Positions 42,901 to 64,000 of a stretch of DNA of 64,000 bases are shown piece by piece; position 1 is the first letter of the stretch; every line of letters begins with the position of its first letter. The stretch lies in contig OX387602.1 of NCBI GenBank assembly GCA_947568835.1, positions 18,527,021 to 18,591,020 of the forward strand. The letters are read 5' to 3'. The stretch is from Protonemura montana. Lineage: Eukaryota; Arthropoda; Insecta; Plecoptera; Nemouridae. The position numbers and the translations under genes were made by a program. Under the pieces are notes generated by a model. It was not told where the DNA came from and did no database searches. It worked only from the letters and a program-made list of their open reading frames with translations.

Positions 42901-44564
42901 GGCGACTCGTATGGAGGAGTTCTTAGCAACTCTAGAATAGGATGCTAATTTAACGGCCACAGGTCAGAATGGTCTGTCACTTTTCCTCGAATCCCGTGTT
43001 ATCTCGAAAGATTTACGGTTGTTGCATTTCAGTTCGGTTGCACATTTTTCCAATCTAGCTTCCTTTCCAACCTTTTAGGTGACAGAACAAGATGAGCAAC
43101 AGTAAAATGCATTGCCCAGGAAATTTGATCGGTTGTAAAAATGGATTTAAAAACTTTGCTCTGTGAATCCTATTCCATATCCAGTTAGATTTGTATTTAT
43201 AATAACTGTACCTTTCCTACTGTGCATTCCAATGCATGCCAACTGTGGTTGACTCTTAGGCAGGTTATCCTGGACCGGCGTGCAGCTCGAAGACAGCGAC
43301 GGCAAGACATGGCCAAGCGGCGTACGGCAGCGGCGCAAGAGCGGATGCGTCTCATCAGCCAGCTGGCGCGCAAAGACAAGCGCGGAGACGATAACTTCGG
43401 AATGCGTGACGAGGACTGGGATGTCTATAAGGCTATCAACAAGGTTAGTATGTTAATTAATGGCTTAAGTTATGAATGCAAAAATGACCAGCAGCATGGA
43501 ATTTTTCTGCCTAAATATGTGACTATATTCTGAAAACCTAATATAGGAGAAGCTTGCTTTAATTGTACAAGAAACAAGTTTTTAGCATAAATGAATTCAT
43601 CTTATGTTAATAAGATTTTTAGCAAACTGATTAGAATGCCAGTGTACCATATGACATCTTTGACCGTTTTATTCAAAATTATAAAATAAACTTTTACAAT
43701 GAAATCGGTTTTACCAATTGAAGAAGCCAAAGATTGCCCTGCCTTCAAAAATAGGCTAGCAGTATTCCTTACAGAAAAACAATTTTATAGCCTGGATGAG
43801 TTGCTTACACCTCATCTTGATGGAATTAACTAGTTGTATCCATGTACACACTGAAAACTTAACTTGATTTATAACTAGGAAATAGTTTAAAAAATTAAAT
43901 AAATAAATTATATACTTGAAACCAGTAACCAAATCCCGCTCCGTCCTAGGAAGGAGGTGATTCCGAGAGTGACGAAGAAGCCAAGCTGCTGGAGCTGGAA
44001 GAGGTTCTGCGACGTCACGACCCACACTTCGACGGTGCCGTATCATCAGAGGCGCCTGCCACAACAGCCGAGAGCCACCAGCTTCATGTGGGCGTGGAGC
44101 AGCTTCGTGCCCCCGAGATCCTATTCCAGCCATCCATGGTCGGCTCGATGGAGGCTGGCTTGGCTGAAGTTATCGAGTTTGTGCTTGCAAGATATCCTGC
44201 TGACGTGCAGATGTTGCTGGTCTCCAAGGTGTTTCTCACCGGCAGCTGTGCTCGGATGCCGGGTCTTGCCGAACGACTCAACAAGGAACTCATGGAGATG
44301 CGGCCATTTAAATCCAAGTTTAATGTGACTGTATCTAAGGATCCGTCTCTCGATGCGTGGTATGGTGCTCGGACATTCGCAGCATCACCAAACTTGGCTC
44401 AGAGCTTGATTACCAAGCAGGAGTATGATGAGCTGGGAGGAGAGTTTTTCAAGGAACACTTTGCATCAAATGTGTATCAATCTTCGCCCACTCCACTACC
44501 GGCAGTTGAAGTAGTTCAGCCGTTGGGGTTGGGAGTGGAGGAAGTTGAAATTGAAGCGTCATAA
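39925..44564 (+). CDS. Arp5: Actin-related protein 5 (INO80 complex), 10 exons
   Basis: Nuclear actin-fold protein that, with Ies6, couples INO80 ATPase activity to nucleosome sliding. Exons: 39925-40027, 40114-40211, 40825-41047, 41148-41431, 41568-41786, 41866-41946, 42051-42182, 42298-42386, 43260-43443 and 43950-44564. Phases match throughout, giving 675 aa. Actin-fold blocks include STPLVIDNG at the N-terminus, [39 protein letters not shown] and [11 protein letters not shown]. Between them lies a large charged insertion rich in E, K and R ([30 protein letters not shown]), the ARP5-specific insert, which separates it from actin and other ARPs. Exon 9 must start at 43260 to keep the frame. 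AATAAA follows at 44747. A tRNA-like repeat lies in intron 8. Confidence 0.95.
42768..42839 (-). repeat. tRNA-like sequence, probably tRNA-derived SINE head or tRNA pseudogene
   Basis: The minus strand begins GCCCAGATAGCTCAGTTGG, with a good RNA polymerase III A box (TAGCTCAGTTGG), and has a B box GGTTCGTATCC at 42778-42788. The acceptor and anticodon arms mostly pair (anticodon loop CCGGCAA), but the T stem has mismatches and position 33 is C rather than U, so it is not a functional tRNA. The following bases to about 42600 may be the SINE body. It lies antisense in ARP5 intron 8. Confidence 0.6.
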
Positions 44565-44913: not shown

Positions 44914-47597
44914 TTATAATTTTAACTCGTGGACTCTTCTTTTTCCTCTTTGTCGACATCGATGCAATAGGTTTGAAGGTAGTGAATGAAATATGACAAG
45001 GAACTGGAACAGGAACAGAAAATGAGCTTGGTAAGCACATGAGCATTTCCAGCTTGATGTTGCAAAAAGTGGGTGGCCATAGACAAACCCTAAGGTGACG
45101 AATGCAACGGAAAGAAGGATGAGGAGACCGAACTGAGAAGGGTATGGGAACAAGATCACAAGGATAGACTTGAGCACGTCCAAGAGCATGTTCAGACTTT
45201 CTTGCACACCACCAACTATCCCTCGCTTGTTCTCTGGTATTGCTTCTTGGTAAATCTGTGTTATCGTGATATCAGTAATCCATAGACCTGCAACGAAGTT
45301 CTGTCAGATTTCCTTACAATAGGTAAATATAAATACTGGATACTGTAGGGCATTAATATATGTAGCATATTATTAATAAATTATCAATAAATGTGAACTC
45401 ATTTACATCCCCTCTCCCAAACCACTATTTTCTTGCTTTCTGCAGAATTCACTGGCCAAATCCTGATTTATGTTCAAAAAGTCCTCACAAAGTCAAGACA
45501 CTAACTTATTTGTAAATTGTAAAAACAACACGTGACAATGTATCCAGCCTTGAAATAAACTGTGACAGTTATTTTGTGTTATTGTTTCACTTAATTAATA
45601 CAATTCGAATTGTCGATTGCAATCTTAAATTTCAAAATAAAATTCCTCACCAAATCTTGATGCAATGACTCCACTGAGAAAAGCAGAGATTGATTCTTTC
45701 GAAAGATTTGTTTTATTTGTTACAGTCGAGGGAGATGGTTTATACAGAGGGCTTAACGTGCTGCTATCAAAATCCGACCCAGGAAGCCATATTGAGTAGA
45801 TGCAAGGAATCAAAGCTAACATCTGTAAATAATTGTTTATATCATTTATTGGATAAGGAGCATAGCTGTTAATCAACATACAATGGCACCTTCAAAGTTT
45901 ATTCACAAATTTGTTGTTTAAAGACAACATGATCCTTTTTTGGGTGGTAGTGTTATGTAGCTTGACTCACCTCAAGTAACATCCCACAAATTCCAACTCT
46001 TCCTAGTCCCAACCAATTCCTCAGAAAAGGAAACAATAAAGCACCCATCATTCCCACGATAGCCGCTATTGCTTGAGACACTCCCATTGCCCACGTCGGT
46101 ACCGAAGTATTACCATGAGCTGCATAAGAATAATAAATGTTTTTAACCTCATGGTTTTAACCACTCCAGAGTATAGTTTCAAGAAAAGAGTAAAAGGCAC
46201 CAGTGGTTACAGCATCAAATCCAAGTACTGTCATGTACAGCAACGCCAGAGCGATACCAGCCATTCGAACAGGCTGCTGGAAGTACATGAGCCAGTCGGA
46301 AAAAAGGCAATAGAACAGTGTTTGACAGCATCCACAAAAAGTGTTTTTTTCCACTCGCGGGCAAACATCGTGACTCGAGAACTTTTCTATGCACGTAGTA
46401 AGATGCTTTTGCGAAGGAATCTTTGTCGACAGTGCCGGATTTTCTCTGTATATGAGCCATAGCAGTGTATATCTGCAATATGAAATATATAAATATATAT
46501 ATATATTTAATTTAGATAATCTTCTAAGAGCAATAGTAGATGTGTACATTTTTTGCTTACTCCACAAACATTGAGATGAAATTCCATGTACCAATAAAGA
46601 TCGCTCCCACAATATTGTTGGTTAACCCCATTAATAAACCAACTGTGAGAGGGGCTAGAATATGTGTTCCCAAATCAATCGATCGGAAAATGGAATTTAT
46701 CCCTGTAAAAAATACACATCAACAAGTTTTTGATAAGCACTGATATATAGGTAACTTGTGTTTCAGTCATCACCTTATATTTACATCATAGCATTCTCAA
46801 AGTTCATAGCATTCTCAATGTTTATAGCATTCTCAAACTTACATAGCATTTTCCTACTTAAGGTATTCAAACAAACTCATACCTACTTGCTAACTCATTG
46901 GTATCGCCTGCAGCCAAGACCACAACCCAATCCTTTTGTAGGATAATGTTGTTTGCTAGTGTAGCAATCCGAGAAATGCACGATGTTGTAATTGCAATTA
47001 CTTGAAGGATGAACAAGAACCAGTATGTCCACAGCAATTCTATTTCAGGTTTAAAAGCAATTGCACTTGCTATCGTTAAAGCACATATAGCCAGTAAAAT
47101 GTTTTGGGCTAATAGTGACCTTTGAGCAGCTAGAAAAAAAATGTAATTTAAAAATTAGTTTCTAAAGCATGGGTCTATAAATCATATTCGTTTTTTTGCA
47201 TTGCAATAATTTGTATAAAGATGTGCTCAAGCTGTGGGCAGTAGTGTACCTTGAAGTCTGGGGGTTCTGTCAACCCAACGGCCCACAGATCCTCCAAAAA
47301 TAACTACACATCCCGACAATGATAATGTGAATACCCCTGTCAGAGTAAGGTTATTTTTATCCGCACTTATGTCTACCATAAACAATCCTCCGGCAAACCA
47401 CCACATCCTGTCCCCCCAGGCCGAGAGCAGCTGCGAAAGATATACTTTCATTATTGGTTTCTTTCCTGAAACAAGGAATTAAGTGAAGTTAAGAACGTCT
47501 TAAGACTTTCAGTCACATCGTTAGATTTTATAAGTTGCAATACATCATACATCTCGAGTTTCTCGAGTTTAAAAGTAAAGGACTTACGAAAACTCAT
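44914..47597 (-). CDS. SLC40A1: Ferroportin/SLC40-family transporter, intact copy, 8 exons
   Basis: A multi-pass membrane protein of the ferroportin (SLC40) family, which exports divalent iron across the plasma membrane in animals. Exons in transcript order: 47588-47597, 47250-47465, 46887-47129, 46561-46702, 46201-46472, 45971-46119, 45651-45822 and 44914-45287. They join in phase to 525 aa (human: 571). Family blocks visible are SAWGDRMWWFAG, GRWVDRTPRLQ, LQKDWVVVLAAGD, FQQPVRMAGIALALLYMTVL, SGVIASRFGLW and NKRGIVGGVQESLN. By alignment with the human protein from memory, Asp39 is kept, but His43 reads Trp, Cys326 reads Ala and His507 reads Lys, so the metal sites are altered (see findings). 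The first coding exon is only 10 bp. The 5' part is duplicated at 53862-54517. A specific paralogue or transport substrate cannot be assigned. Confidence 0.9.
46787..46860. repeat. Short tandem repeat (about 20 bp, four units)
   Basis: Four imperfect units of CATAGCATTCTCAAAGTT type, with spacings of about 18-22 bp, in the intron between ferroportin exons 3 and 4. It lies about 80 bp outside the left breakpoint of the large duplication. Confidence 0.75.
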
Positions 47598-48306
47598 AGT
47601 TGATGGTGAGTCTGATAAACGATTTCAGGAAAGAAATATGTTGACACATTTGGTAACTATTATAAATATTATTACTTAATTTTCACTATATATTTTAGCT
47701 TAAGCTTGCGATTAAAATTATATAAATACATTTTTTGAGGAAACTAGCTACTTTTGACGCATGCAAGATACAAATTTAGAAAATTAAAATCCGATATACA
47801 AAAGTTATCACTCATTCCGCATTCCCATAAAACAATTCGTAATCTCCCACCATTGCTGCCATTAGTATTTTTTAACTCTGGGAATGTAATCCACCTTGCC
47901 GTGGTGCCTGTCACGTGCATGTGCTTTCAGCTCACCGCCTTCACGTTTTGAGTGCATGGCCACACTGGCCACACGGTTGACGGAAGCGCGCGTGACTATC
48001 TGTCGTAAACGAAATCAATAGTTGGTATCTTTGCCTCGTTTGATGATGTGTTCTATCAAGCAAGTGATTAGCACCTTCAAAATACCTTAATTATATTCTA
48101 CCATGAAATTATGCAAAACTTATCGAAGGCCGTTGTTGATAACTGAAATCAGCTTCTTTTCAAGGTACCTACCTACCTCATTCTCTTCCCAACACCTCTA
48201 AGATTAGGAACCAAAACCGAGATAGTTCCTTGGCATAATCATCTCCTTAGTATTGTTGTGCCAAATTTTTAGCACTTCATTCAAGTATAATCTATTTATA
48301 AATACA
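47598..48306. promoter_or_regulatory. Divergent promoter between ferroportin-like and cytidine deaminase genes
   Basis: 709 bp between diverging start codons. It contains a CACGTG E-box at 47912-47917 and a CpG-richer patch around 47930-47998, the likely start-site zone. The whole interval is repeated at 54518-55226. Confidence 0.5.
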
Positions 48307-49391
48307 ATGGACAATATTGCAAATAAAGCGCTCAAGAGCGAGCCAAAAGTTATTGCGTTTACATCTCTCGGTAAGTAAGAAATTTCTTGAAATGTCACAA
48401 TAAAGGAGGATTGCGTTATGCTGCTCAGATTTTTTTGAAATTTTTGGACTCTTTTCAGGGCACTTCTAAGTTTTGTCGTTTTCCCAGTGAATTCTTTTCA
48501 GAGTATCCATTCTGCTCAAAGGTTAAATCTGCAAAACCGTTTCATTTTTAACTTACTGTTGCAAGTGCTACTGGTGGTGTTATAGGGCTGCCATTGTCCA
48601 GTATTTATGTATTTGACCAGACATTATTTTGACTCCTAAAGCACATTTCTTGCTGGACCTGGCTTGACCAGGAAGGAGCACGCACACCAGGTAAAGTGCA
48701 TTACAACGGCATTACGTTATTGAGGAAGATCCTCACCCATGCAAATCTGCGTAAAATACCATATATCATTTGTTTTCAAAGGTATAGTTTTCTAAAAGAA
48801 AAACTGTTCGAACAGCTTAAAAAAATGGGTTGCCAACGCTATCCCCCTTTATTGAGTATATGGCTTCGACTAATGTAGCTGTTACTGACTTTATTCTAAT
48901 TTATTCTTTGCGAAAAGTTGTTTTCAACACTGACCAATATTCTATGCTTTGGAAATTAAGATTCTGATATACTAACTCAAACTATATCTTTTTTAGAAAG
49001 AGACGTTCAAGCGTTACTAAATGAAGCATCAGCGGCTCGAGAATTATCATACTCTCCATACAGCAAGTTTCCTGTGGGAGCAGCGATCAGAAGTTCCAAT
49101 GGCACAATTTTTTCGGGATGTAATGTTGAGAATGCATCTTATGGTCTTTCTATCTGTGCAGAGCGAACAGCATTAGTAAAGGCAATTAGTGTAGGAATTA
49201 AAACATTCCATTCAATTGCAGTTGTTGCCCATTTAGAAAACAACCCTAATTTTGTCGCACCCTGTGGAGCTTGTCGACAGTTTATTGCTGAGTTTGGCAC
49301 TGAAATTATTGTCTATTTATCCAAACCAGATTTAAAAGATGTTCAAATAACAACTGCTAAGGAGCTTTTACCATTCAGTTTTCATTTCTGA
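48307..49391 (+). CDS. CDA: Cytidine deaminase, copy 1
   Basis: Zinc enzyme of pyrimidine salvage that converts cytidine and deoxycytidine to uridine and deoxyuridine in the cytosol. Exon 1, 48307-48370, encodes MDNIANKALKSEPKVIAFTSL. Exon 2, 48997-49391, joins through a split Glu codon to give 152 aa, the usual length of the homotetrameric class (human 146). Active-site signatures: GCNVENASYGLSICAERTA provides one zinc Cys and the catalytic Glu of CAE, and PCGACRQF provides the other two zinc cysteines. The C-terminal KELLPFSF matches the family end. The intron ends in TTTTTTAG. A second, apparently identical gene lies at 55227-56311. AATAAA is seen at 49621. Confidence 0.95.
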
Positions 49392-51021
49392 AAAAGCATT
49401 AGTTTTAGTAGGTCTGCAATATTTGAATTAGGTTTTTTAACAATATGTTTTTAGAGTATCTTACCTTGTGTCAATGTCTGAATTTTTAGTACGTAATTAT
49501 TATTAAAGTCTACATGGGTACTTCATCATTTTATAACTGTAACTTGCAAACCACTATAGTGACAAAGATTTAAATGAACTTTGCTATTTTAGTCTCTTCA
49601 TAAATTTTAATATAAATTTTAATAAAAATTGATAGAAACAAACTAGACACTATCTGACAACCCCTACTTCTAAATCAGCTTGGTGTCTTAGGTATAAAGA
49701 GATTTTTCTTACAGTAATGCAAGAACTGTCTTACTGTCTTTACAGTAATGCAAGTCATGTAAGTTATTGAAAGGTACTCTATCTTGCTCTGTGTGAAACC
49801 AAGAATCACCAATGATTTTTGACATGCAAAAGCATCAGTTAAGTTTTGAGTAAGTTTAACAAAGTTTTACATATCAAGTTTTATAAAGATCTGAAAGGCT
49901 GTTGCCCTTCAGATATGAATATTTGTAGCATTGAGTTTAATGGTCAAGTTAAATGGTTAAAATAGAACATGAACTGGGGATGCATTACAATGTATGCTGC
50001 TGATAAAAATAGCTCATTAGTCATTGATGGTTGGTGCCAGAAGCCAAAATTATAAAAAGTAAGTAGGTATATATTATTATCGATTTATCTAGGTGCACCA
50101 TCAGCACTATAGTGCTGATGGTGTACCGACTGTATATTGATAGCCGCAGCGATAGCTCGTAACAATATTATGCCGTATGCTTGCAAAGTTCCATGGAAAA
50201 CACTGCTGGCTGTAGGATGGCAAGTGATCTGTGGTTGTATTCTATCTTAACTATGGGCCTTGTCCTTTATCAATATTTTTTCAGCTTAATCTTGAATCAT
50301 ATGACTGTTGAGGTGCGGCAGGGGCTCATATTTATTTATTGGGCTAGATAGACTCAATGTGGTAAGTTTTTATTGAGTCAACCTTCCTTTGATCTGCGCA
50401 TGTTAAGTATGCAGCGAGTGGTTTTGCAGGGTTTGTTTTATTTTATTTATTTATTTACCCACCTAAATTGACCATAATTAACCTTAATTGACCCAAAGAC
50501 TCTCTAGATTAATATTTTTCAGAATCTAAAATATCACCTCTTAACTATTTGAAAGAAAATGATACAGGAGAGTGTTCATGATACTATTTTACTTGGTTGC
50601 GACCTCTGTTTGGGTCATTTGAATCAATTTGAATGGTGGGCACCATATTGTTGGTAGGGTGGGGAATGTAGCTGTGTGTCTTCTCCATTGTGCAGTTTGT
50701 GATGGGAGTGGGAAGATGTCGGTTGTTTTTGGGTTACCGCGTGCATTTTGGTGATCGTGGTTAAAATCCATATTAAAAATATAAAATTATGATTAACAAG
50801 TGCACACGGTATTTATTTTCGTCCCAGAAATGTACTTTCTTTTAGAGGAGCATATGAAATGTACTTCTCAAAATCTATTTAGAGGTTAGCTAGGCTTATG
50901 ATGCCTAGGGTCTAGATTGCCAGATGATAAAACTGCGTTTTATTGAGTTTTAAACTCACTGTTGACCAAGTTGGATCAAACTCGAATAATCTTTTATTAT
51001 TTGATTGGTTGGTGACTAATT
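49392..51021. other. Intergenic between cytidine deaminase and TOR, copy 1
   Basis: About 1.6 kb, AT-rich, holding the 3' UTR of the deaminase and the TOR promoter. It includes a near-perfect 36-bp inverted repeat at 50092-50127 and a TTTA simple repeat near 50436-50458. No gene is seen. The minus 60-codon frame at 50589-50771 is not protein-like. Confidence 0.6.
50092..50127. repeat. Near-perfect 36-bp palindrome (hairpin)
   Basis: The arms GGTGCACCATCAGCACTA and TAGTGCTGATGGTGTACC are complementary except for one base pair, with no loop spacer. It could form a cruciform or an RNA hairpin. The same palindrome recurs at 57012-57047 in the second copy. Confidence 0.85.
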
Positions 51022-52729
51022 ATGTCAAATCCTCTCATGTCACAATTTGTGACGGGATTGAAGTCCCGTCACGCTGATGCTCGAACAAAAGCTGGACGAG
51101 ATCTATACCATTATGTCAAGACTGAGCTACGTGAAGTGTCAGTCGAAGAACTTACTGCTTTCATGGATGAGTTTAACCATCACATATTTGAGATGGTATC
51201 AGGCACTGACGTTAATGAGAAAAAAGGAGGGATTCTTGCCATAGGTGCGTACACGAGTTCAGTTCATTCACTTCGAATGTGCTACCTAGGTAGACACAGA
51301 CAGTTAATCATTTGTACTACCCATGTCATTTGGAATAAACATTCATTTTCTGCAGTATGTCTTATTGGTGCTGATGGAGGCAATATTGTAACGAGGACAA
51401 TACGCTTCGCCAACTACCTGCGGAACCTATTGCCATCAAACGACATCAGCGTCATGGAAATGGCTGCCATGACTGTCGGGAAACTGGCATTGGTTTCTGG
51501 GACATATGCTGCTGAATATGTTGAGTTTGAAGTGAAGCGAGCCTTTGAGTGGCTTGGAGGAGATCGCCATGAAGGAAAGAGACACGCTGCGGTAATGATC
51601 AGTCCTTTGTACCAAGAGTCATACCTTACCTAGTATCTTCTATATTTTCCTTACACAAAATATTTAATTGTTTCATACAATGTATGTTATTGTTTTATTT
51701 TTCGTTTCTCTACCCAGGTCCTTGTTCTCAGAGAACTGGCTGTGACCATGCCGACGTACTTCTTCCAACAAGTTCAGCAGTTTTTTGACCTAATATTCAA
51801 TGCTGTGCGAGATATGAAACCAGCAATTAGAGAAGGAGCTGTCGAAGCAATTCGAGCAGCATTGGTTGTTACAGCTCAGAGAGAAACGGCAAAACAAACA
51901 CAGAAGCCTCAGTGGTATGTTCAAAGTTAAAATACATTGAAAAAAAAAAGTCAATGATATAAATAATTGAGAAAAACTGTAAACACTACTAGATTCAGTT
52001 TTGGAGTAAAATATCTGTTTTAGATAGCAGTTCCTTTTGATTCAAATCATAGACTCTGCTTACATAGCTATTTGCAAAGTACATGTGCAAAGTAGTAAAA
52101 AATATTGGCCACCTGCTTAGGTACAAGCAGTCATACGATGAGGCGACCAGCGGGCTAGATGAGCTAGCAGCTCGTGAGAAAGGAGTAAATCGCGAGGACC
52201 GCGTGCACGGATCTCTGCTGGTTTTCAATGAGCTGCTTCGGTGCAGCAACGTGGAGTGGGAACGCAGCTACGAGGAGCTGCTTGACAAGCTACATGACCA
52301 GCAGGTGCAACAGTCAAGTGTAAGTGTCTATGATTATTCTCATCTGCATAAATGTTACATATTTTATTTTTTATTTGGAGCCTTAACAAGCTTCGTAGTT
52401 AAAAACAAGTTTTATTGGAGGAACTGTACTTGACTAGGAAAGAGACTGACTTGGTCTTTTCCCTCAAACAAAGAGACCAATCTCAGGTATCTGTGGCTTG
52501 GTCAAGATGGCCGTGCTCATTTTTTGGGGGTGGGATAATATTATCTAATACTATTAGTTTATAAGTTTATTATATTTTTATTAAATTTCTATTATTTATA
52601 CTTACATTTATTTGTACGTGGACAGCATAAGATATGTCATTAAAAAAGTTTTCAAACATTAGAAGTCAAATGTTTATACTTAACTAAATGATTAAAAAAC
52701 GGTTCTAAAATAGCAAGGCTGTGCAACCT

Positions 52730-52905
52730 GAAAAGGTCGTTAGAGGGTCAAGAAGAGTGGAAGGAATGAGAGGAGCTAAACTCAACAGGACAGGTTGGAT
52801 ACAATGTAAACTACAAGGGCAGTTGTATGCCTAGATTGCATTTTGAGGAAACAGAAAATGAACACATTATTTCCATCTGCCCCTTTTTTATAGAAATCAA
52901 TTCAA
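52730..52905 (+). repeat. Possible non-LTR retrotransposon fragment in TOR intron 4
   Basis: A short plus-strand frame reads LHFEETENEHIISICPFF. This resembles the zinc-knuckle-like C-rich tail (C-x-x-EETxxHxxxxCP) near the end of many non-LTR reverse-transcriptase ORFs. The surrounding frame is broken. The segment is also present in the second copy at 59650-59825. The call rests on this one motif. Confidence 0.25.
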
Positions 52906-53840
52906 TTGCCCATCACTCAGATTGAAATGTATTGAGTCCAAAAAAAAACAATCTTCAGACATCAATTAAATTTTTTTTGTTACGTGCGCAGGACGCCATG
53001 AGCTTGATGCCGCGACTGAAGTCTCCGCTGGTGTCCAAGTCTCAGCCAAACAAGGGCAGCCCAGTGGCAGCGGTCGTGTCACCGGTTGGAAACCCGCACG
53101 GCCCGCTGTTCGAGAGCACTGCATGTCGTCAACTCGTCACGGAACACTTCAGCTCTATCTGTGCCGAGGTGCTAAACCAGCGCGGTGTGCGCAACCCACA
53201 CATTCAGCACACGCTGTTAGCCATCCTGCCGAGACTGGCCGCATTCAACCGTGCAAAGTTCATTAAGGCGTGAGTGTTTGACTTATAATACTTAAATCGA
53301 TTCCTGTTGATATGTGGCATTATTTTCACTCAAGCTTGAAGCTCGTGAGTTTTTTTAATCCTTGGGAGACTAAAGACATGGTAAATGTCTTACCTTGACT
53401 ATGACTTGACTTTGCACCTGAATGATCTCAAATAGTATAAAAAACACAATCAGTAAACCATTCAGAAAACCTTTCCTTCCTTAAATGTTTAACAGTTGGT
53501 ATTATTGATGAATATTTAATATCTTAAGCAAAGGACAGTCTCCACTCTTTTATGCCTGGCAGTCAAAAATGTATTAAAGTTTGACTGAATGTGATTTTCT
53601 AGCTTCAACTAAGCTGATTGAAAAAATAAGCCAAACTTTGCATGAAAGACAAAACCTTGATTTCTTAGATCTTAATTTCTTGTGGAGGCTCTATATTTGT
53701 TTGAGAGTGGGATGTTTGTGTGTGCTGCAGCCACCTAAATGTGTCGATGCATTACCTGCTGACAACTCTGCGTGGCCGAGATCGCGATCGCAGTGCAGCC
53801 TTCACCACCATCGGCCTTATCGCAGTTGCCGTGGGCGACG

Positions 53841-53861
53841 TTGGGTTGCCGTTGCCGTGGC
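53841..53861. other. 21-bp spacer at the duplication junction
   Basis: Bases between the two 6.9-kb copies that belong to neither. They consist of GTTGCC/GTTGG units that repeat the last bases of copy 1 (GTTGCCGTGGGCGACG at 53825-53840). The spacer therefore looks copied from the adjacent end rather than random. Confidence 0.9.
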
Positions 53862-54517
53862 GATAATGTTGTTTGCTAGTGTAGCAATCCGAGAAATGCA
53901 CGATGTTGTAATTGCAATTACTTGAAGGATGAACAAGAACCAGTATGTCCACAGCAATTCTATTTCAGGTTTAAAAGCAATTGCACTTGCTATCGTTAAA
54001 GCACATATAGCCAGTAAAATGTTTTGGGCTAATAGTGACCTTTGAGCAGCTAGAAAAAAAATGTAATTTAAAAATTAGTTTCTAAAGCATGGGTCTATAA
54101 ATCATATTCGTTTTTTTGCATTGCAATAATTTGTATAAAGATGTGCTCAAGCTGTGGGCAGTAGTGTACCTTGAAGTCTGGGGGTTCTGTCAACCCAACG
54201 GCCCACAGATCCTCCAAAAATAACTACACATCCCGACAATGATAATGTGAATACCCCTGTCAGAGTAAGGTTATTTTTATCCGCACTTATGTCTACCATA
54301 AACAATCCTCCGGCAAACCACCACATCCTGTCCCCCCAGGCCGAGAGCAGCTGCGAAAGATATACTTTCATTATTGGTTTCTTTCCTGAAACAAGGAATT
54401 AAGTGAAGTTAAGAACGTCTTAAGACTTTCAGTCACATCGTTAGATTTTATAAGTTGCAATACATCATACATCTCGAGTTTCTCGAGTTTAAAAGTAAAG
54501 GACTTACGAAAACTCAT
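53862..54517 (-). pseudogene. Ferroportin-like gene fragment (5' exons 1-2 and part of 3)
   Basis: Duplicate of the start of the SLC40-family gene: exon 1 at 54508-54517, exon 2 at 54170-54385 and the first 188 bp of exon 3 at 53862-54049. The frame passes ATLANNII, crosses the junction and stops 12 codons later at a TAA inside the antisense of TOR exon 6 (about 53818-53820). Only the first few membrane helices would be encoded. The divergent promoter is retained, so transcription is possible, but transport is not expected from this fragment. Confidence 0.88.
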
Positions 54518-55226
54518 AGTTGATGGTGAGTCTGATAAACGATTTCAGGAAAGAAATATGTTGACACATTTGGTAACTATTATAAATATTATTACTTAAT
54601 TTTCACTATATATTTTAGCTTAAGCTTGCGATTAAAATTATATAAATACATTTTTTGAGGAAACTAGCTACTTTTGACGCATGCAAGATACAAATTTAGA
54701 AAATTAAAATCCGATATACAAAAGTTATCACTCATTCCGCATTCCCATAAAACAATTCGTAATCTCCCACCATTGCTGCCATTAGTATTTTTTAACTCTG
54801 GGAATGTAATCCACCTTGCCGTGGTGCCTGTCACGTGCATGTGCTTTCAGCTCACCGCCTTCACGTTTTGAGTGCATGGCCACACTGGCCACACGGTTGA
54901 CGGAAGCGCGCGTGACTATCTGTCGTAAACGAAATCAATAGTTGGTATCTTTGCCTCGTTTGATGATGTGTTCTATCAAGCAAGTGATTAGCACCTTCAA
55001 AATACCTTAATTATATTCTACCATGAAATTATGCAAAACTTATCGAAGGCCGTTGTTGATAACTGAAATCAGCTTCTTTTCAAGGTACCTACCTACCTCA
55101 TTCTCTTCCCAACACCTCTAAGATTAGGAACCAAAACCGAGATAGTTCCTTGGCATAATCATCTCCTTAGTATTGTTGTGCCAAATTTTTAGCACTTCAT
55201 TCAAGTATAATCTATTTATAAATACA

Positions 55227-56311
55227 ATGGACAATATTGCAAATAAAGCGCTCAAGAGCGAGCCAAAAGTTATTGCGTTTACATCTCTCGGTAAGTAAGA
55301 AATTTCTTGAAATGTCACAATAAAGGAGGATTGCGTTATGCTGCTCAGATTTTTTTGAAATTTTTGGACTCTTTTCAGGGCACTTCTAAGTTTTGTCGTT
55401 TTCCCAGTGAATTCTTTTCAGAGTATCCATTCTGCTCAAAGGTTAAATCTGCAAAACCGTTTCATTTTTAACTTACTGTTGCAAGTGCTACTGGTGGTGT
55501 TATAGGGCTGCCATTGTCCAGTATTTATGTATTTGACCAGACATTATTTTGACTCCTAAAGCACATTTCTTGCTGGACCTGGCTTGACCAGGAAGGAGCA
55601 CGCACACCAGGTAAAGTGCATTACAACGGCATTACGTTATTGAGGAAGATCCTCACCCATGCAAATCTGCGTAAAATACCATATATCATTTGTTTTCAAA
55701 GGTATAGTTTTCTAAAAGAAAAACTGTTCGAACAGCTTAAAAAAATGGGTTGCCAACGCTATCCCCCTTTATTGAGTATATGGCTTCGACTAATGTAGCT
55801 GTTACTGACTTTATTCTAATTTATTCTTTGCGAAAAGTTGTTTTCAACACTGACCAATATTCTATGCTTTGGAAATTAAGATTCTGATATACTAACTCAA
55901 ACTATATCTTTTTTAGAAAGAGACGTTCAAGCGTTACTAAATGAAGCATCAGCGGCTCGAGAATTATCATACTCTCCATACAGCAAGTTTCCTGTGGGAG
56001 CAGCGATCAGAAGTTCCAATGGCACAATTTTTTCGGGATGTAATGTTGAGAATGCATCTTATGGTCTTTCTATCTGTGCAGAGCGAACAGCATTAGTAAA
56101 GGCAATTAGTGTAGGAATTAAAACATTCCATTCAATTGCAGTTGTTGCCCATTTAGAAAACAACCCTAATTTTGTCGCACCCTGTGGAGCTTGTCGACAG
56201 TTTATTGCTGAGTTTGGCACTGAAATTATTGTCTATTTATCCAAACCAGATTTAAAAGATGTTCAAATAACAACTGCTAAGGAGCTTTTACCATTCAGTT
56301 TTCATTTCTGA
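55227..56311 (+). CDS. CDA: Cytidine deaminase, copy 2
   Basis: Exon 1 at 55227-55290 and exon 2 at 55917-56311, predicting the same 152-aa protein as the copy at 48307-49391, with the same CAE and PCGAC zinc motifs. It is the only complete gene doubled by the tandem duplication, and it retains its own divergent upstream region (54518-55226). I saw no base difference between the two genes, so both are predicted to be functional if the duplication is real. Confidence 0.93.
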
Positions 56312-57941
56312 AAAAGCATTAGTTTTAGTAGGTCTGCAATATTTGAATTAGGTTTTTTAACAATATGTTTTTAGAGTATCTTACCTTGTGTCAATGTCTG
56401 AATTTTTAGTACGTAATTATTATTAAAGTCTACATGGGTACTTCATCATTTTATAACTGTAACTTGCAAACCACTATAGTGACAAAGATTTAAATGAACT
56501 TTGCTATTTTAGTCTCTTCATAAATTTTAATATAAATTTTAATAAAAATTGATAGAAACAAACTAGACACTATCTGACAACCCCTACTTCTAAATCAGCT
56601 TGGTGTCTTAGGTATAAAGAGATTTTTCTTACAGTAATGCAAGAACTGTCTTACTGTCTTTACAGTAATGCAAGTCATGTAAGTTATTGAAAGGTACTCT
56701 ATCTTGCTCTGTGTGAAACCAAGAATCACCAATGATTTTTGACATGCAAAAGCATCAGTTAAGTTTTGAGTAAGTTTAACAAAGTTTTACATATCAAGTT
56801 TTATAAAGATCTGAAAGGCTGTTGCCCTTCAGATATGAATATTTGTAGCATTGAGTTTAATGGTCAAGTTAAATGGTTAAAATAGAACATGAACTGGGGA
56901 TGCATTACAATGTATGCTGCTGATAAAAATAGCTCATTAGTCATTGATGGTTGGTGCCAGAAGCCAAAATTATAAAAAGTAAGTAGGTATATATTATTAT
57001 CGATTTATCTAGGTGCACCATCAGCACTATAGTGCTGATGGTGTACCGACTGTATATTGATAGCCGCAGCGATAGCTCGTAACAATATTATGCCGTATGC
57101 TTGCAAAGTTCCATGGAAAACACTGCTGGCTGTAGGATGGCAAGTGATCTGTGGTTGTATTCTATCTTAACTATGGGCCTTGTCCTTTATCAATATTTTT
57201 TCAGCTTAATCTTGAATCATATGACTGTTGAGGTGCGGCAGGGGCTCATATTTATTTATTGGGCTAGATAGACTCAATGTGGTAAGTTTTTATTGAGTCA
57301 ACCTTCCTTTGATCTGCGCATGTTAAGTATGCAGCGAGTGGTTTTGCAGGGTTTGTTTTATTTTATTTATTTATTTACCCACCTAAATTGACCATAATTA
57401 ACCTTAATTGACCCAAAGACTCTCTAGATTAATATTTTTCAGAATCTAAAATATCACCTCTTAACTATTTGAAAGAAAATGATACAGGAGAGTGTTCATG
57501 ATACTATTTTACTTGGTTGCGACCTCTGTTTGGGTCATTTGAATCAATTTGAATGGTGGGCACCATATTGTTGGTAGGGTGGGGAATGTAGCTGTGTGTC
57601 TTCTCCATTGTGCAGTTTGTGATGGGAGTGGGAAGATGTCGGTTGTTTTTGGGTTACCGCGTGCATTTTGGTGATCGTGGTTAAAATCCATATTAAAAAT
57701 ATAAAATTATGATTAACAAGTGCACACGGTATTTATTTTCGTCCCAGAAATGTACTTTCTTTTAGAGGAGCATATGAAATGTACTTCTCAAAATCTATTT
57801 AGAGGTTAGCTAGGCTTATGATGCCTAGGGTCTAGATTGCCAGATGATAAAACTGCGTTTTATTGAGTTTTAAACTCACTGTTGACCAAGTTGGATCAAA
57901 CTCGAATAATCTTTTATTATTTGATTGGTTGGTGACTAATT
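56312..57941. other. Intergenic between cytidine deaminase copy 2 and TOR
   Basis: Copy of 49392-51021, including the 36-bp palindrome at 57012-57047. It contains the promoter of the full-length TOR gene. No additional gene is seen. Confidence 0.6.
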
Positions 57942-60900
57942 ATGTCAAATCCTCTCATGTCACAATTTGTGACGGGATTGAAGTCCCGTCACGCTGATGC
58001 TCGAACAAAAGCTGGACGAGATCTATACCATTATGTCAAGACTGAGCTACGTGAAGTGTCAGTCGAAGAACTTACTGCTTTCATGGATGAGTTTAACCAT
58101 CACATATTTGAGATGGTATCAGGCACTGACGTTAATGAGAAAAAAGGAGGGATTCTTGCCATAGGTGCGTACACGAGTTCAGTTCATTCACTTCGAATGT
58201 GCTACCTAGGTAGACACAGACAGTTAATCATTTGTACTACCCATGTCATTTGGAATAAACATTCATTTTCTGCAGTATGTCTTATTGGTGCTGATGGAGG
58301 CAATATTGTAACGAGGACAATACGCTTCGCCAACTACCTGCGGAACCTATTGCCATCAAACGACATCAGCGTCATGGAAATGGCTGCCATGACTGTCGGG
58401 AAACTGGCATTGGTTTCTGGGACATATGCTGCTGAATATGTTGAGTTTGAAGTGAAGCGAGCCTTTGAGTGGCTTGGAGGAGATCGCCATGAAGGAAAGA
58501 GACACGCTGCGGTAATGATCAGTCCTTTGTACCAAGAGTCATACCTTACCTAGTATCTTCTATATTTTCCTTACACAAAATATTTAATTGTTTCATACAA
58601 TGTATGTTATTGTTTTATTTTTCGTTTCTCTACCCAGGTCCTTGTTCTCAGAGAACTGGCTGTGACCATGCCGACGTACTTCTTCCAACAAGTTCAGCAG
58701 TTTTTTGACCTAATATTCAATGCTGTGCGAGATATGAAACCAGCAATTAGAGAAGGAGCTGTCGAAGCAATTCGAGCAGCATTGGTTGTTACAGCTCAGA
58801 GAGAAACGGCAAAACAAACACAGAAGCCTCAGTGGTATGTTCAAAGTTAAAATACATTGAAAAAAAAAAGTCAATGATATAAATAATTGAGAAAAACTGT
58901 AAACACTACTAGATTCAGTTTTGGAGTAAAATATCTGTTTTAGATAGCAGTTCCTTTTGATTCAAATCATAGACTCTGCTTACATAGCTATTTGCAAAGT
59001 ACATGTGCAAAGTAGTAAAAAATATTGGCCACCTGCTTAGGTACAAGCAGTCATACGATGAGGCGACCAGCGGGCTAGATGAGCTAGCAGCTCGTGAGAA
59101 AGGAGTAAATCGCGAGGACCGCGTGCACGGATCTCTGCTGGTTTTCAATGAGCTGCTTCGGTGCAGCAACGTGGAGTGGGAACGCAGCTACGAGGAGCTG
59201 CTTGACAAGCTACATGACCAGCAGGTGCAACAGTCAAGTGTAAGTGTCTATGATTATTCTCATCTGCATAAATGTTACATATTTTATTTTTTATTTGGAG
59301 CCTTAACAAGCTTCGTAGTTAAAAACAAGTTTTATTGGAGGAACTGTACTTGACTAGGAAAGAGACTGACTTGGTCTTTTCCCTCAAACAAAGAGACCAA
59401 TCTCAGGTATCTGTGGCTTGGTCAAGATGGCCGTGCTCATTTTTTGGGGGTGGGATAATATTATCTAATACTATTAGTTTATAAGTTTATTATATTTTTA
59501 TTAAATTTCTATTATTTATACTTACATTTATTTGTACGTGGACAGCATAAGATATGTCATTAAAAAAGTTTTCAAACATTAGAAGTCAAATGTTTATACT
59601 TAACTAAATGATTAAAAAACGGTTCTAAAATAGCAAGGCTGTGCAACCTGAAAAGGTCGTTAGAGGGTCAAGAAGAGTGGAAGGAATGAGAGGAGCTAAA
59701 CTCAACAGGACAGGTTGGATACAATGTAAACTACAAGGGCAGTTGTATGCCTAGATTGCATTTTGAGGAAACAGAAAATGAACACATTATTTCCATCTGC
59801 CCCTTTTTTATAGAAATCAATTCAATTGCCCATCACTCAGATTGAAATGTATTGAGTCCAAAAAAAAACAATCTTCAGACATCAATTAAATTTTTTTTGT
59901 TACGTGCGCAGGACGCCATGAGCTTGATGCCGCGACTGAAGTCTCCGCTGGTGTCCAAGTCTCAGCCAAACAAGGGCAGCCCAGTGGCAGCGGTCGTGTC
60001 ACCGGTTGGAAACCCGCACGGCCCGCTGTTCGAGAGCACTGCATGTCGTCAACTCGTCACGGAACACTTCAGCTCTATCTGTGCCGAGGTGCTAAACCAG
60101 CGCGGTGTGCGCAACCCACACATTCAGCACACGCTGTTAGCCATCCTGCCGAGACTGGCCGCATTCAACCGTGCAAAGTTCATTAAGGCGTGAGTGTTTG
60201 ACTTATAATACTTAAATCGATTCCTGTTGATATGTGGCATTATTTTCACTCAAGCTTGAAGCTCGTGAGTTTTTTTAATCCTTGGGAGACTAAAGACATG
60301 GTAAATGTCTTACCTTGACTATGACTTGACTTTGCACCTGAATGATCTCAAATAGTATAAAAAACACAATCAGTAAACCATTCAGAAAACCTTTCCTTCC
60401 TTAAATGTTTAACAGTTGGTATTATTGATGAATATTTAATATCTTAAGCAAAGGACAGTCTCCACTCTTTTATGCCTGGCAGTCAAAAATGTATTAAAGT
60501 TTGACTGAATGTGATTTTCTAGCTTCAACTAAGCTGATTGAAAAAATAAGCCAAACTTTGCATGAAAGACAAAACCTTGATTTCTTAGATCTTAATTTCT
60601 TGTGGAGGCTCTATATTTGTTTGAGAGTGGGATGTTTGTGTGTGCTGCAGCCACCTAAATGTGTCGATGCATTACCTGCTGACAACTCTGCGTGGCCGAG
60701 ATCGCGATCGCAGTGCAGCCTTCACCACCATCGGCCTTATCGCAGTTGCCGTGGGCGACGACATCAAACCCTTCCTACCAAAGATTTTCGAGATCATCAA
60801 GTTCTCTTTGCCCTCGAAAGTATGCTAAATTACAAAGCATGCATTTTTTAAACTAGGCCAACAATCTGCTTTTTTTTGCTTCACACAATTTCTTCACAAT

Positions 60901-63900
60901 TTGCTATGCTGTACAATTTCTTGCTGTTAGCTGCAAGGTTTTTCAAAACCTGGGCTTTTAAAAATCAGTCTCACTTACAATGTACAAGAAATATTACTAG
61001 ATGTCAACATTTTGGGTCTAAATTTAATTTTTAAGTTGCAAATTATAAGTTGAAATTTCCCCAAAGATAAAAACACGATTCTTCCATATAACATTTGGAG
61101 ATGATTTCAAACCAAAATGTCTCGAGGAAAAACGTCTTTCAATGAGAGGCAAAGACATTGATTTTTTTCTGTCAAAACACATTAAGTAGCTTAAGAAACT
61201 TCATTAGCATCAATATTAATTTCCAAAAAAATTAAAAAGCACGCTCAGTGTTTCCAACTCATAGCCTGTTATTTCAGGAGACACCGAGCAAAAAGCGCGG
61301 CCTGATGCTGGAGCCGGCCGTGTTTGTGTGTATAACACTACTAGGCCACGCAGTCAAGAAGACAGTGCGGGACGATGTACACGAGCTGCTCGAGCCGATG
61401 CTCGCCACTGGTCTCAGCGCGTCTCTCACCACCGCCCTGCGCGAGCTGGCCACAAACATACCCTCACTCAAGAAGGATATCTCGGAAGGTGCGTTGGATT
61501 TCCAAAAGACCCGAAATTATAGCTGGCCCGTTACGCGTTTATTTTTTATATTCATCTGTTGTGTGAGAAAAAGTGACTGATACCTTAGAGAAAAGAATGA
61601 TAATGGGTTAGGTAGAGCCGTATAAGTATAGAGCGATCTTCTGCCAGAAAAAATTGTTGTTGTTCTGGAATCACGCTAGAGCACATGCCGGGCGGCGAAT
61701 TTGACGGTAGCGCCAGTCATTTTAGCGTGATTGCTAGTAACTTTTTGTGCATAAGTCGGACTTTGAGACTTGGCCGGGACTACTTGGCTTGAGGTTAACT
61801 AAGAAATAAATTCTTTGGGTCGAGCCTGTACATCTGGCTGGCTCGGAAGGTTTACTATTTTTAGAAACCCATAATCACAAATATCTGTTATCTTTTTGCT
61901 TTGCAGGCTAGCGAAGTACTAGGCCCGGTTTTACCAACGTTTTCAAATACTAGCTGGGAATGTTTTCGGTAAAAGTGACCGTTAGTCACAATTAGGGATG
62001 CATCCGGGTACCCAGTTTCAATACCCGGTTCCTACCCGGTTCCTACCCGGTTCCTACCCGGTTCCTACCCGGTTCCTACCCGGTCCCCCCCCCCCCACCC
62101 CCCACCTAACTGCCATCGCAGTTAGTCGGCTTATAGTGCGGTTCACAATATACCACAGACGCCATTCGAGTCGACTCGACTGTCAAGTGTCACTGATGTC
62201 TGAAATCGCGCCAAGACTCTAGCGGCGAGTCAGCTGTTTGGGTGGAGGGGTAGTGCGACTGGTAGTGGAAGCTGTACAGGTCGGGAGGAGGGTGGGGATT
62301 CGAGCGGCCCATCGGCTGCGTGGTTAGAGAGGTAGGGCGAGTGAGGTCACGCTATACCGTCCGGGAGCTGAGAGGGGAACTTCGCCGCAGTGATTCAAGC
62401 TAGCGTGGCAGGGTACAGCGGTGTAAATTTTTTGACGAAAAAACAAACAAAACCCGGATCCCAAACGTTGGAACCGGGTTCGTCATTACCCGGAAGCGAC
62501 CCGGGTACCCGGGTATGCGAAGGCATCCCTAGTCACAATGCGTTAAAAATTATTCCTCACAAATTCATTATTCTTCACCTAAAAGATTTCTTTAATTATT
62601 TTTGAAGTCAACCTAACGACTCGGCAGTTGATGTGCTTTTTGGTGGCCATCATTGCAATGCAGTTTATTAGAGTGCCGAAGTCATCATACACAAATTGTA
62701 GGCAAGACAATGATGTCAACTTATTGATGATCATGCCTAGTTTGGAGGATACTCTTATCATTCCCGATAACTGAGAAGAGTTCCATGATACTGAGCGTCG
62801 AATTGAGATTATCGATCTTCCTGGCCACGATGCAGCAACTTATTCTAATATGCGTTCTCTTAGCAGCATGACCGTCCTGTGTCACGAGTGGTATTGGCAA
62901 TAGCAAAAAAGTCTTTATGCATTAGATTGGCGTTAGATTTTTACATTAATCAGCCTTTTTAACGTCAAAATTATTGTTCTATGAACGGCGTTTATCTGTC
63001 AGATTTTCCCTGCCCTGTCGCTTCGACAAGTCAGTTGGATAAGCAACACAGGTTCGCGTCTAATACCTGCTCGGAGGAACAAAATCAAATTCCTTTCCCA
63101 CCTTTGCCTCGGGGACACTTTATGTTTCCTGTACCTAAAGAAACTAATTCGCACTTATTTGTGACAGCAACTGAAGGGATCGGATTATTGCTGTTGATTA
63201 TATGCTATTTCATAAGTCACAATTTTATAACATAAAACTTAAAAAAGCCGTCATCCAGAAACCCACCAAAATTGCTCGGATTTCGATTTATGTATTTATT
63301 TTTTAATTAGATGCAGAAAGAAAATATCTATAAAAATTAATTTTTTCGTTTATAGCATAAAATTAAAGAACCTGAGTGAGCCTGATGTTAAATGTCTCTT
63401 AAGATTAAAAGGAACCGTCTTCCTCGTTTCTTTAAAACAGTCCATGGAATCATTAGAATTGATTTGGTATCGTCTCACTCAAGTGGTTTTGTCAAGCCAG
63501 CTTGAAACTGATGAAAAGAATGGTTGCTACCCGTTTCTAAAAATAGCACACCTTTTTCGCTACCTGGCAATCGCTAGCCCGTCGACAGGCTCACAAATAC
63601 CGAATATTCTAACAGCCTGAGGTGAGTTGGTAACGCATCTCATGTAGTTGCTTGATGTGCCACTAAATCCACCATTCGCTACCTGCTAGTACCCCAAACG
63701 ACTGCTGCGATCATAGTGTGATTCCAAAGAAAGTCGAGAAAACCGGCCGAAAACTTAACATAGACTATACGGCTCTACCCTACTCATTCTTTTCTCTAAG
63801 CTGATGCCATTGTGTGAGAATGATATACTCTAGGGTAGAAAAGGACTTCGTGACTGAAATGTTTTTACACGAATTTGGTGAGATTTCTTTAATTTCATGT

Positions 63901-64000
63901 CAGCAATTATACAGGTTAGATGAAAGTGGCAGAATTCCTCTTCTTTGCAAGATATTGTCATACTGTGCTTTAAAATGTTATCCAGTAAAATTTGAGCCAC
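57942..64000 (+). CDS. Tor: TOR serine/threonine kinase, N-terminal part (runs off right edge)
   Basis: TOR is the PIKK-family kinase at the core of TORC1 and TORC2, controlling growth, ribosome production and autophagy. Visible exons: 57942-58164, 58276-58511, 58638-58834, 59041-59239, 59912-60189, 60651-60819 and 61278-61488. They join in phase to about 504 residues of an expected ~2,500. The frame follows the N-terminal HEAT repeats: ELREVSVEELTAFMDEFNHH, RFANYLRNLLPSNDISVMEM, AAEYVEFEVKRAFEWLGGDR, NREDRVHGSLLVFNELLR, LAILPRLAAFNRAKF and DVHELLEPMLATGLSASLT, all close to vertebrate mTOR. The start is the first ATG (MSNPLMSQFVTGLKSRH) and aligns with the family start. Intron 1 is only 111 bp and in frame. 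The donor at 61489 opens an intron that fills the rest of the window and holds a transposon remnant. Confidence 0.95.
61985..62539. mobile_element. hAT-type MITE with 8-bp target duplication
   Basis: Element 61993-62531 (539 bp). Its termini are TAGGGATGCATCC and GAAGGCATCCCTA. It is flanked by perfect 8-bp direct repeats GTCACAAT at 61985-61992 and 62532-62539. TAGGG-like ends with 8-bp duplications are the hallmark of hAT transposons. Subterminal CCGGGTACCC motifs occur in both arms. It holds an 11-bp tandem repeat and no transposase, so it is non-autonomous. It is nested inside the older 61584-63800 element. Confidence 0.85.
62022..62087. repeat. 11-bp tandem repeat (TACCCGGTTCC), about six units
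   Basis: Nearly perfect tandem copies inside the left arm of the hAT-type MITE, running into a C-rich tract at about 62085-62102. The unit resembles the subterminal ACCCGG motifs of the element. Confidence 0.9.
63356..63620 (+). pseudogene. Transposase-like C-terminal exon remnant
   Basis: After an acceptor (TTCGTTTATAG) a frame of 87 codons runs to TGA at 63618-63620. It passes through LKNLSEPDVKCLLRLKG and NGCYPFLKIAHLFRYLAIAS. The last part resembles the YPxLxxLAxxYLxIPxxS region of the hAT C-terminal dimerisation domain, but lacks the usual SER-x-FS continuation. It lies between the inverted repeats of the 61584-63800 element, so I read it as the remains of that element's transposase. 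The rest of the coding region is degraded or missing. Confidence 0.4.

What the first reader, a model, noticed from the sequence alone, without database searches (positions are those of the whole stretch)
46942..60760. Direct tandem duplication of 6,899 bp with both breakpoints inside coding exons
Copies at 46942-53840 and 53862-60760 (offset 6,920) looked identical in every stretch compared, including introns and homopolymers. The breakpoints fall in ferroportin exon 3 and TOR exon 6, yet the arrangement keeps one intact version of each broken gene at the outer ends, as expected of a true tandem duplication. Lack of divergence means either a very recent event or an assembly artefact.
Basis: partly seen in the sequence, partly recalled or inferred. 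Interest (0 to 1): 0.78.

Follow-up and report, generated by a model that had tools for sequence, protein, structure and literature searches.

The report
Recent exact 6.9-kb tandem duplication
A stretch of 6,899 bases in an arthropod (probably insect) chromosome appears to have been copied head-to-tail very recently, doubling one small gene and leaving two gene stubs at the join, where the scar looks like ordinary error-prone DNA break repair.

Summary
Confirmed to the base: 46942-53840 and 53862-60760 are identical at 6,899 of 6,899 positions, directly repeated, with a 21-nt spacer that belongs to neither copy. Breakpoints lie in ferroportin coding exon 3 and TOR coding exon 6; the outer versions of both genes run on past them. 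The unit holds one complete cytidine deaminase gene, now doubled. At the middle junction two stubs face each other: TOR (414 native residues + 8) and ferroportin (138 + 14).

The new evidence is the spacer: 20 of its 21 bases are covered by 8-mers found within 50 bp of the breakpoints, reached by 0 of 2,000 shuffles, 0 of 2,000 window 21-mers and 2 of 2,000 GC-matched 21-mers. Such patchwork filler is a footprint of polymerase-theta-type end joining; the genome encodes a theta-like polymerase. A templated scar without an N gap argues against an assembler error, but reads and depth could not be examined. Best reading: a genuine, very young, perhaps still polymorphic duplication of an ordinary kind, probably near-neutral or mildly harmful. 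Interest low to moderate.

The parts
46942..53840 (+). Copy 1 of the 6,899-bp unit (C1:18573962-18580860)
   Evidence: identical to copy 2, 0 mismatches; coordinates
53841..53861 (+). 21-nt junction filler TTGGGTTGCCGTTGCCGTGGC, a patchwork of sequence found beside the breakpoints
53862..60760 (+). Copy 2 of the unit (C1:18580882-18587780)
53825..53834 (+). Probable template of filler 53845-53852 (8 nt) and 53851-53860 (10 nt), same orientation, 6-15 nt inside the TOR-side end
46923..46930 (-). Possible template of filler 53841-53848 (8 nt, reverse complement), 12-19 nt outside the ferroportin-side breakpoint; a 10-nt alternative lies at 47271-47280
44917..47597 (-). Outer ferroportin gene, apparently intact (coding exons 1-3 in copy 1 and across its edge: 47588-47597, 47250-47465, 46883-47129; further exons in the left flank)
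   Evidence: Pfam FPN1 on separate exons (profile positions 284-365 not matched); splice sites
53817..54517 (-). Ferroportin stub from copy 2: 138 native residues + 14 junction residues, stop TAA at 53819-53817
48307..49391 (+). Cytidine deaminase, copy 1: exons 48307-48370 and 48997-49391, complete ORF
   Evidence: PDB cytidine deaminase E 1.3e-38, Pfam PF00383, splice model
55227..56311 (+). Cytidine deaminase, copy 2 (identical)
51022..53866 (+). TOR stub from copy 1: exons 1-6, 414 native residues + 8 junction residues, stop TAA at 53864-53866
57942..64000 (+). Outer TOR gene beginning in copy 2, reading on past the breakpoint and out of the window (FRB domain at C1:18698276-18698970, same strand); not checked exon by exon

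Best explanation
A genuine, very recent germline tandem duplication. Two double-strand ends about 6.9 kb apart (one in ferroportin exon 3, one in TOR exon 6, on sister chromatids or after a copying step) were joined head-to-tail by polymerase-theta-mediated (alternative) end joining, which left a 21-nt patchwork filler copied from sequence beside the breaks. Shown: identity, orientation, single junction, filler templating, outer genes running on, inner stubs, complete doubled cytidine deaminase gene, and a theta-like polymerase gene in the genome. Inferred: germline origin, polymerase theta as the enzyme, youth, and the functional effect (doubled cytidine deaminase dosage plus two non-functional stubs; most likely near-neutral or mildly deleterious).
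For: Exact 6,899-bp identity with abrupt ends. The junction matches over its whole length once in the genome; its halves recur only at the outer copies. Filler coverage 20 of 21 by 8-mers within 50 bp of the breaks, against 0 of 2,000 shuffles, 0 of 2,000 window 21-mers and 2 of 2,000 GC-matched 21-mers; the template at 53825-53834 fits two successive stretches. No N in the window or in 170 kb of flank. Outer TOR reads on past the breakpoint and an FRB domain follows on the same strand; outer ferroportin exon 3 ends at a GT donor and further FPN1 exon matches follow. A-family polymerases with best matches to theta (E 7.8e-32) and nu (E 1.2e-40) are encoded. In C. elegans helq-1 mutants tandem duplications depend on POLQ-1 and carry occasional templated insertions (PMC8654963, section 12); loss of polq-1 suppresses tandem duplications in brc-1/brd-1 worms (PMC7368036, abstract passage).
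Against: No reads, depth or second individual were available, so an artefact is not formally excluded. The theta signature rests on one junction, and k-mer length and distance were varied over seven settings after the spacer had been seen (all seven are in the report). Ten-base matches alone are weaker: at 50 bp, 7 of 2,000 shuffles, 18 of 2,000 window 21-mers and 8 of 2,000 GC-matched 21-mers reach the observed value, and at 1,000 bp the best single 10-nt match is reached by 37 of 500 shuffles and 76 of 500 window 21-mers. The nearest template of the first filler piece lies just outside the unit, on the far side of the ferroportin break, not in the end that was joined, so a simple two-end model needs the other end or a sister molecule as donor. 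Zero divergence could also reflect gene conversion.
Confidence: 0.82

Rival explanations
1. Assembly artefact: two overlapping or haplotypic contig ends were laid in series instead of being merged.
For: Zero divergence over 6.9 kb including introns. A published survey found false duplications in long-read assemblies too, part of them on one scaffold (PMC9516828, passages).
Against: [quoted passage not shown] A 21-nt spacer patched from bases beside the breakpoints is not what an unmerged overlap would be expected to produce. Allelic (heterotype) false duplications should usually show differences; there are none in 6,899 positions.
Confidence: 0.1
2. Replicative template switching (FoSTeS/MMBIR) rather than end joining of two broken ends made the duplication; the same scar could follow.
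For: The filler carries short copies from both breakpoint regions, one in inverted orientation and from outside the unit, which serial template switching can also make.
Against: Very short pieces (8-10 nt), two of them from one template within 16 nt of the joined end, fit iterative theta priming better. This is a judgement, not a test.
Confidence: 0.2
3. A 6,920-bp extrachromosomal circle formed by end joining and then recombined back into the homologous locus.
For: The arrangement is exactly what integration of a circle containing the 21-nt junction would give (geometry).
Against: Needs an extra step and leaves no distinguishing mark; nothing here points to it specifically.
Confidence: 0.05
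4. Older duplication kept identical by gene conversion or unequal exchange.
For: Identity alone cannot separate youth from conversion.
Against: Identity runs to the very last base at both ends, where conversion tracts would be expected to fade, and introns are included.
Confidence: 0.04

Closest known systems
Polymerase-theta-dependent tandem duplications in C. elegans helq-1 and brc-1/brd-1 mutants (PMC8654963, section 12 and passages; PMC7368036, passages)
   Same: Kilobase-scale direct duplications (about 100 bp-10 kb in helq-1; 1 kb-1 Mb, mostly about 10-20 kb, in brc-1/brd-1); occasional templated insertions at the duplication junctions; patchwork filler at deletion junctions of helq-1 mutants.
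   Different: Here a single natural event in an unidentified arthropod reference; no genetic test of dependence.
Segregating tandem duplications of Drosophila yakuba that cut across gene boundaries (PMC5460883, passages)
   Same: Duplications that copy whole genes and pieces of neighbours; 1,004 of 1,116 there captured genes or gene fragments.
   Different: Here both cut genes point outwards from the unit, so the junction gives two 5' stubs facing each other and no 5'-to-3' chimeric gene.
False (heterotype/homotype) duplications in assemblies (PMC9516828, passages)
   Same: Adjacent duplicate on one scaffold.
   Different: No gap, no divergence, templated junction filler; depth untested.

Membership tests
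Tandem (head-to-tail) segmental duplication | Two adjacent copies in direct orientation | tested here: met
Tandem (head-to-tail) segmental duplication | One novel junction only; outer junctions ancestral, shown by genes that read on across them | tested here: met
Tandem (head-to-tail) segmental duplication | Supported by reads or depth as two physical copies | not testable with these tools
   no reads held
Polymerase-theta-mediated end-joining scar | Insertion templated from sequence close to the joined ends | tested here: met
   20 of 21 bases covered (k=8, 50 bp), 0 of 2,000 shuffles; settings chosen after seeing the spacer
Polymerase-theta-mediated end-joining scar | Terminal microhomology at the junction | tested here: inconclusive
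   identity extends 0 bases beyond each end; with a filler present, priming microhomology at each switch is at most a few bases and cannot be told from chance
Polymerase-theta-mediated end-joining scar | Dependence on POLQ | not testable with these tools
   a theta-like gene is present (best match); dependence not tested
Duplication by non-allelic homologous recombination | Long homology between the two breakpoints and no inserted bases | tested here: not met
   21 inserted bases and 0-base overlap; none of the other 21 of 22 repeat pairs at E<=1e-20 touches a breakpoint (homology too short for that threshold would be missed)
False duplication by the assembler | Assembly gap between the copies | tested here: not met
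   no N
False duplication by the assembler | Haploid-level read depth or discordant linked reads | not testable with these tools
   no reads held

The most novel reading that the evidence does not exclude
The duplication is a young allele under selection: the second complete cytidine deaminase raises pyrimidine-salvage capacity, or the 422-residue TOR N-terminal stub is translated and acts as a partial competitor in TOR signalling, so that a single theta-type repair event created a new regulatory allele at a growth-and-iron locus.
Probability: 0.04. Interest if true: 0.5.

Novelty: new member of a known kind. Interest (0 to 1): 0.25.

Why it matters
It is a base-resolved, probably natural example of a young tandem duplication with a patchwork templated scar: one data point for how gene duplicates arise outside model organisms, and an example of weighing a real duplication against an assembly error by its junction when reads are not at hand. 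It also warns annotators that one TOR model and one ferroportin model here are truncated stubs.

Tried and rejected
Species: the mitochondrial contig C34 (15,885 bp), TTAGG repeats and the mitochondrial tRNA order (ancestral insect/crustacean order as I recall it) point to an arthropod, probably an insect. The other stonefly and mayfly notes in the listings have other sizes (listings only). A search for the genome size in print gave one unrelated paper. Species left unidentified.

There is thus no genome-wide rate.

Whole-unit genome search listed only four short matches (83-87% identity, within query 5766-5836) and missed the two real copies, so it was not used for counting; the shorter queries were used.

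RNA families in 40000-64000 at E<=1: a tRNA, and a mir-1012 match below its gathering score; no iron-responsive element was reported. Non-allelic homologous recombination rejected (filler present, no homology seen). The 10-nt template at 47271-47280 (330 nt inside the left end) is a possible alternative source for the first filler piece; at that distance its support is weak. A third A-family polymerase match (C4:16451248) was not identified. A paper search on ferroportin in insects listed 8 of 855 papers, none of which holds the word ferroportin.
Full report
The observation. The two segments are identical at all 6,899 positions at an offset of 6,920, and identity ends abruptly at the stated coordinates. 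The 21 bases between them (53841-53861) belong to neither copy. In the own genome (258,480,905 bases, 34 contigs) a 220-bp query over the junction gives three scored matches: itself over its whole length, and one for each half, exactly at the outer copies. A 501-bp query holding the main cytidine deaminase exon matches twice, both times here. In 234,000 contiguous bases around the locus, without any N, 22 repeat pairs were found at E<=1e-20; this one is 6,899 bp long and the next is 812 bp.

The genes. TOR (plus strand) was spliced by hand at GT/AG sites; exons 1-5 are 51022-51244, 51356-51591, 51718-51914, 52121-52319, 52992-53269 and exon 6 starts at 53731. The 414 residues up to the breakpoint match mTOR chain 5h64_A, residues 21-444, at E 9.6e-126. 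Ferroportin (minus strand) has coding exons 47588-47597, 47250-47465 and 46883-47129, matching Pfam FPN1 at E 3.6e-31. In a genome-wide FPN1 search the 6 matches found all lie at this locus, the exon for profile positions 3-69 twice; profile positions 284-365 were not matched, and one match runs over a TAA. Cytidine deaminase (plus strand, exons 48307-48370 and 48997-49391) is complete inside the unit and matches solved cytidine deaminases, best E 1.3e-38.

What the arrangement does. Ferroportin and TOR both point outwards from the cytidine deaminase gene. In a head-to-tail duplication the outermost versions therefore keep their downstream parts: ferroportin of copy 1 continues into the left flank, and TOR of copy 2 reads on past the breakpoint; an FRB domain lies on the same strand 107 kb to the right of the window (C1:18698276). 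I did not check the rest of TOR exon by exon. At the middle junction the two cut genes face each other. TOR of copy 1 ends after 414 native and 8 foreign residues (422 aa, stop at 53864); ferroportin of copy 2 ends after 138 native and 14 foreign residues (152 aa, stop at 53819-53817). Neither is an in-frame fusion with the other gene. The simplest prediction, by inference, is that the stubs are degraded or inert and the only whole-gene gain is a second cytidine deaminase.

The junction. The spacer TTGGGTTGCCGTTGCCGTGGC is a patchwork. Its bases 5-12 and 11-20 fit two successive copies of GTTGCCGT(GG) at 53825-53834, 6-15 nt inside the TOR-side end; its bases 1-8 are the reverse complement of 46923-46930, 12-19 nt outside the ferroportin-side breakpoint. 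A longer alternative for the first piece is the reverse complement of 47271-47280, which also takes in the last two bases of copy 1. I measured how many of the 21 bases are covered by k-mers occurring within D of the breakpoints, against 2,000 shuffles / 2,000 random window 21-mers / 2,000 GC-matched 21-mers (all seven settings run): D50 k7, 20 covered, reached by 1/1/3; D50 k8, 20, 0/0/2; D50 k10, 10, 7/18/8; D100 k8, 20, 0/0/1; D400 k8, 20, 1/31/1; D400 k9, 18, 1/10/4; D400 k10, 18, 0/1/0. Settings were chosen after seeing the spacer. An earlier best-single-match test was weaker: best match 10 nt, reached at D 50 by 3 of 500 shuffles and 6 of 500 window 21-mers, at D 100 by 6 and 11, at D 400 by 2 and 37, and at D 1000 by 37 and 76.

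Mechanism. [quoted passage not shown] In helq-1 worms, POLQ-1-dependent tandem duplications of about 100 bp to 10 kb show microhomology and occasional templated insertions (PMC8654963 section 12), and 14% of theta-type products in helq-1 mutants are patchworks of several stretches (passages). The present genome encodes an A-family polymerase whose best match among solved structures is polymerase theta (C4:4555857-4558099; E 7.8e-32) and another whose best match is polymerase nu (C13; E 1.2e-40); these are best matches, not trees. I therefore favour theta-type end joining of two ends 6.9 kb apart, with replicative template switching as the main mechanistic rival. The first filler piece, whose nearest template lies outside the unit, is the part that a simple two-end model explains least well.

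Real or artefact. PMC9516828 (passages) lists the marks of false duplications: haploid-level depth, gaps between the copies, discordant linked reads. Only the gap could be tested, and there is none. An unmerged overlap has no reason to carry a filler patched from bases beside the breakpoints. The mitochondrial contig begins at tRNA-Phe, which I recall as the convention of a long-read mitochondrial pipeline; this hints at, but does not show, a long-read assembly. I put about 0.1 on an artefact.

Age. With no difference in 6,899 positions, the 95% upper bound on age is 3/(2 x 6,899 x mu): about 217,000, 72,000 or 36,000 generations for assumed rates of 1e-9, 3e-9 or 6e-9 per site and generation (rates assumed). 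It may be far younger, and may be heterozygous or private to one population. Gene conversion would loosen the bound.

Comparison and verdict. In D. yakuba 1,116 tandem duplications were identified, 1,004 of them catching genes or fragments, with 66 whole-gene duplications and 76 chimeric genes, and whole-gene copies rarely changed expression (PMC5460883, passages). The present case is a new member of a known kind with an unusually legible scar. Species is unidentified: TTAGG repeats occur 7,938 and 7,633 times (forward, reverse) as a 25-mer, against 1 and 0 for the reversed control; the Nemurella pictetii assembly was compared by its published statistics and rejected.

Noticed in passing
G000:C4:5760925-5777755 (L004, L006) and C34 (L005): Nuclear COX1-bearing stretches nearly identical to the mitochondrial contig: 7 differences in 4,338 bp for L004, 3 in 2,434 for L006; L004 and L006 identical over 2,434 bp. 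Their COX1 matches lie 15,886 bp apart, about one mitochondrial genome length (15,885), as expected of a recent head-to-tail mitochondrial insertion, or of mitochondrial sequence assembled into a chromosome.
   Followed up: partly
window 29358-29779 and 33024-33422: Two self-complementary elements of about 400 bp (81% and 83% identity to their own reverse complements) that are also 75-78% alike: foldback-type repeats.
   Followed up: no
window 46786-46850: 18-bp tandem repeat, 3.6 copies, 91 bp left of the left breakpoint, in a ferroportin intron; could mark a fragile spot.
   Followed up: no
window 62022-62084: 11-bp tandem repeat TACCCGGTTCC, 5.7 copies, 100% matches, in the TOR gene region right of copy 2.
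   Followed up: no
C1:18669745-18670556 and 18678282-18679091 (outside the window): 812-bp inverted pair at 99.0% identity, about 8 kb apart.
   Followed up: no
window 41129-44561: Actin-family gene pieces (Pfam Actin, E 3.2e-10 and 3.5e-22), likely an actin-related protein gene, left of ferroportin; a tRNA-Ala lies at 42766-42839 minus.
   Followed up: no
window 34885-35283: Exon matching RNA polymerase second-largest subunit domain 3 (PF04565, E 2.6e-11), minus strand.
   Followed up: no
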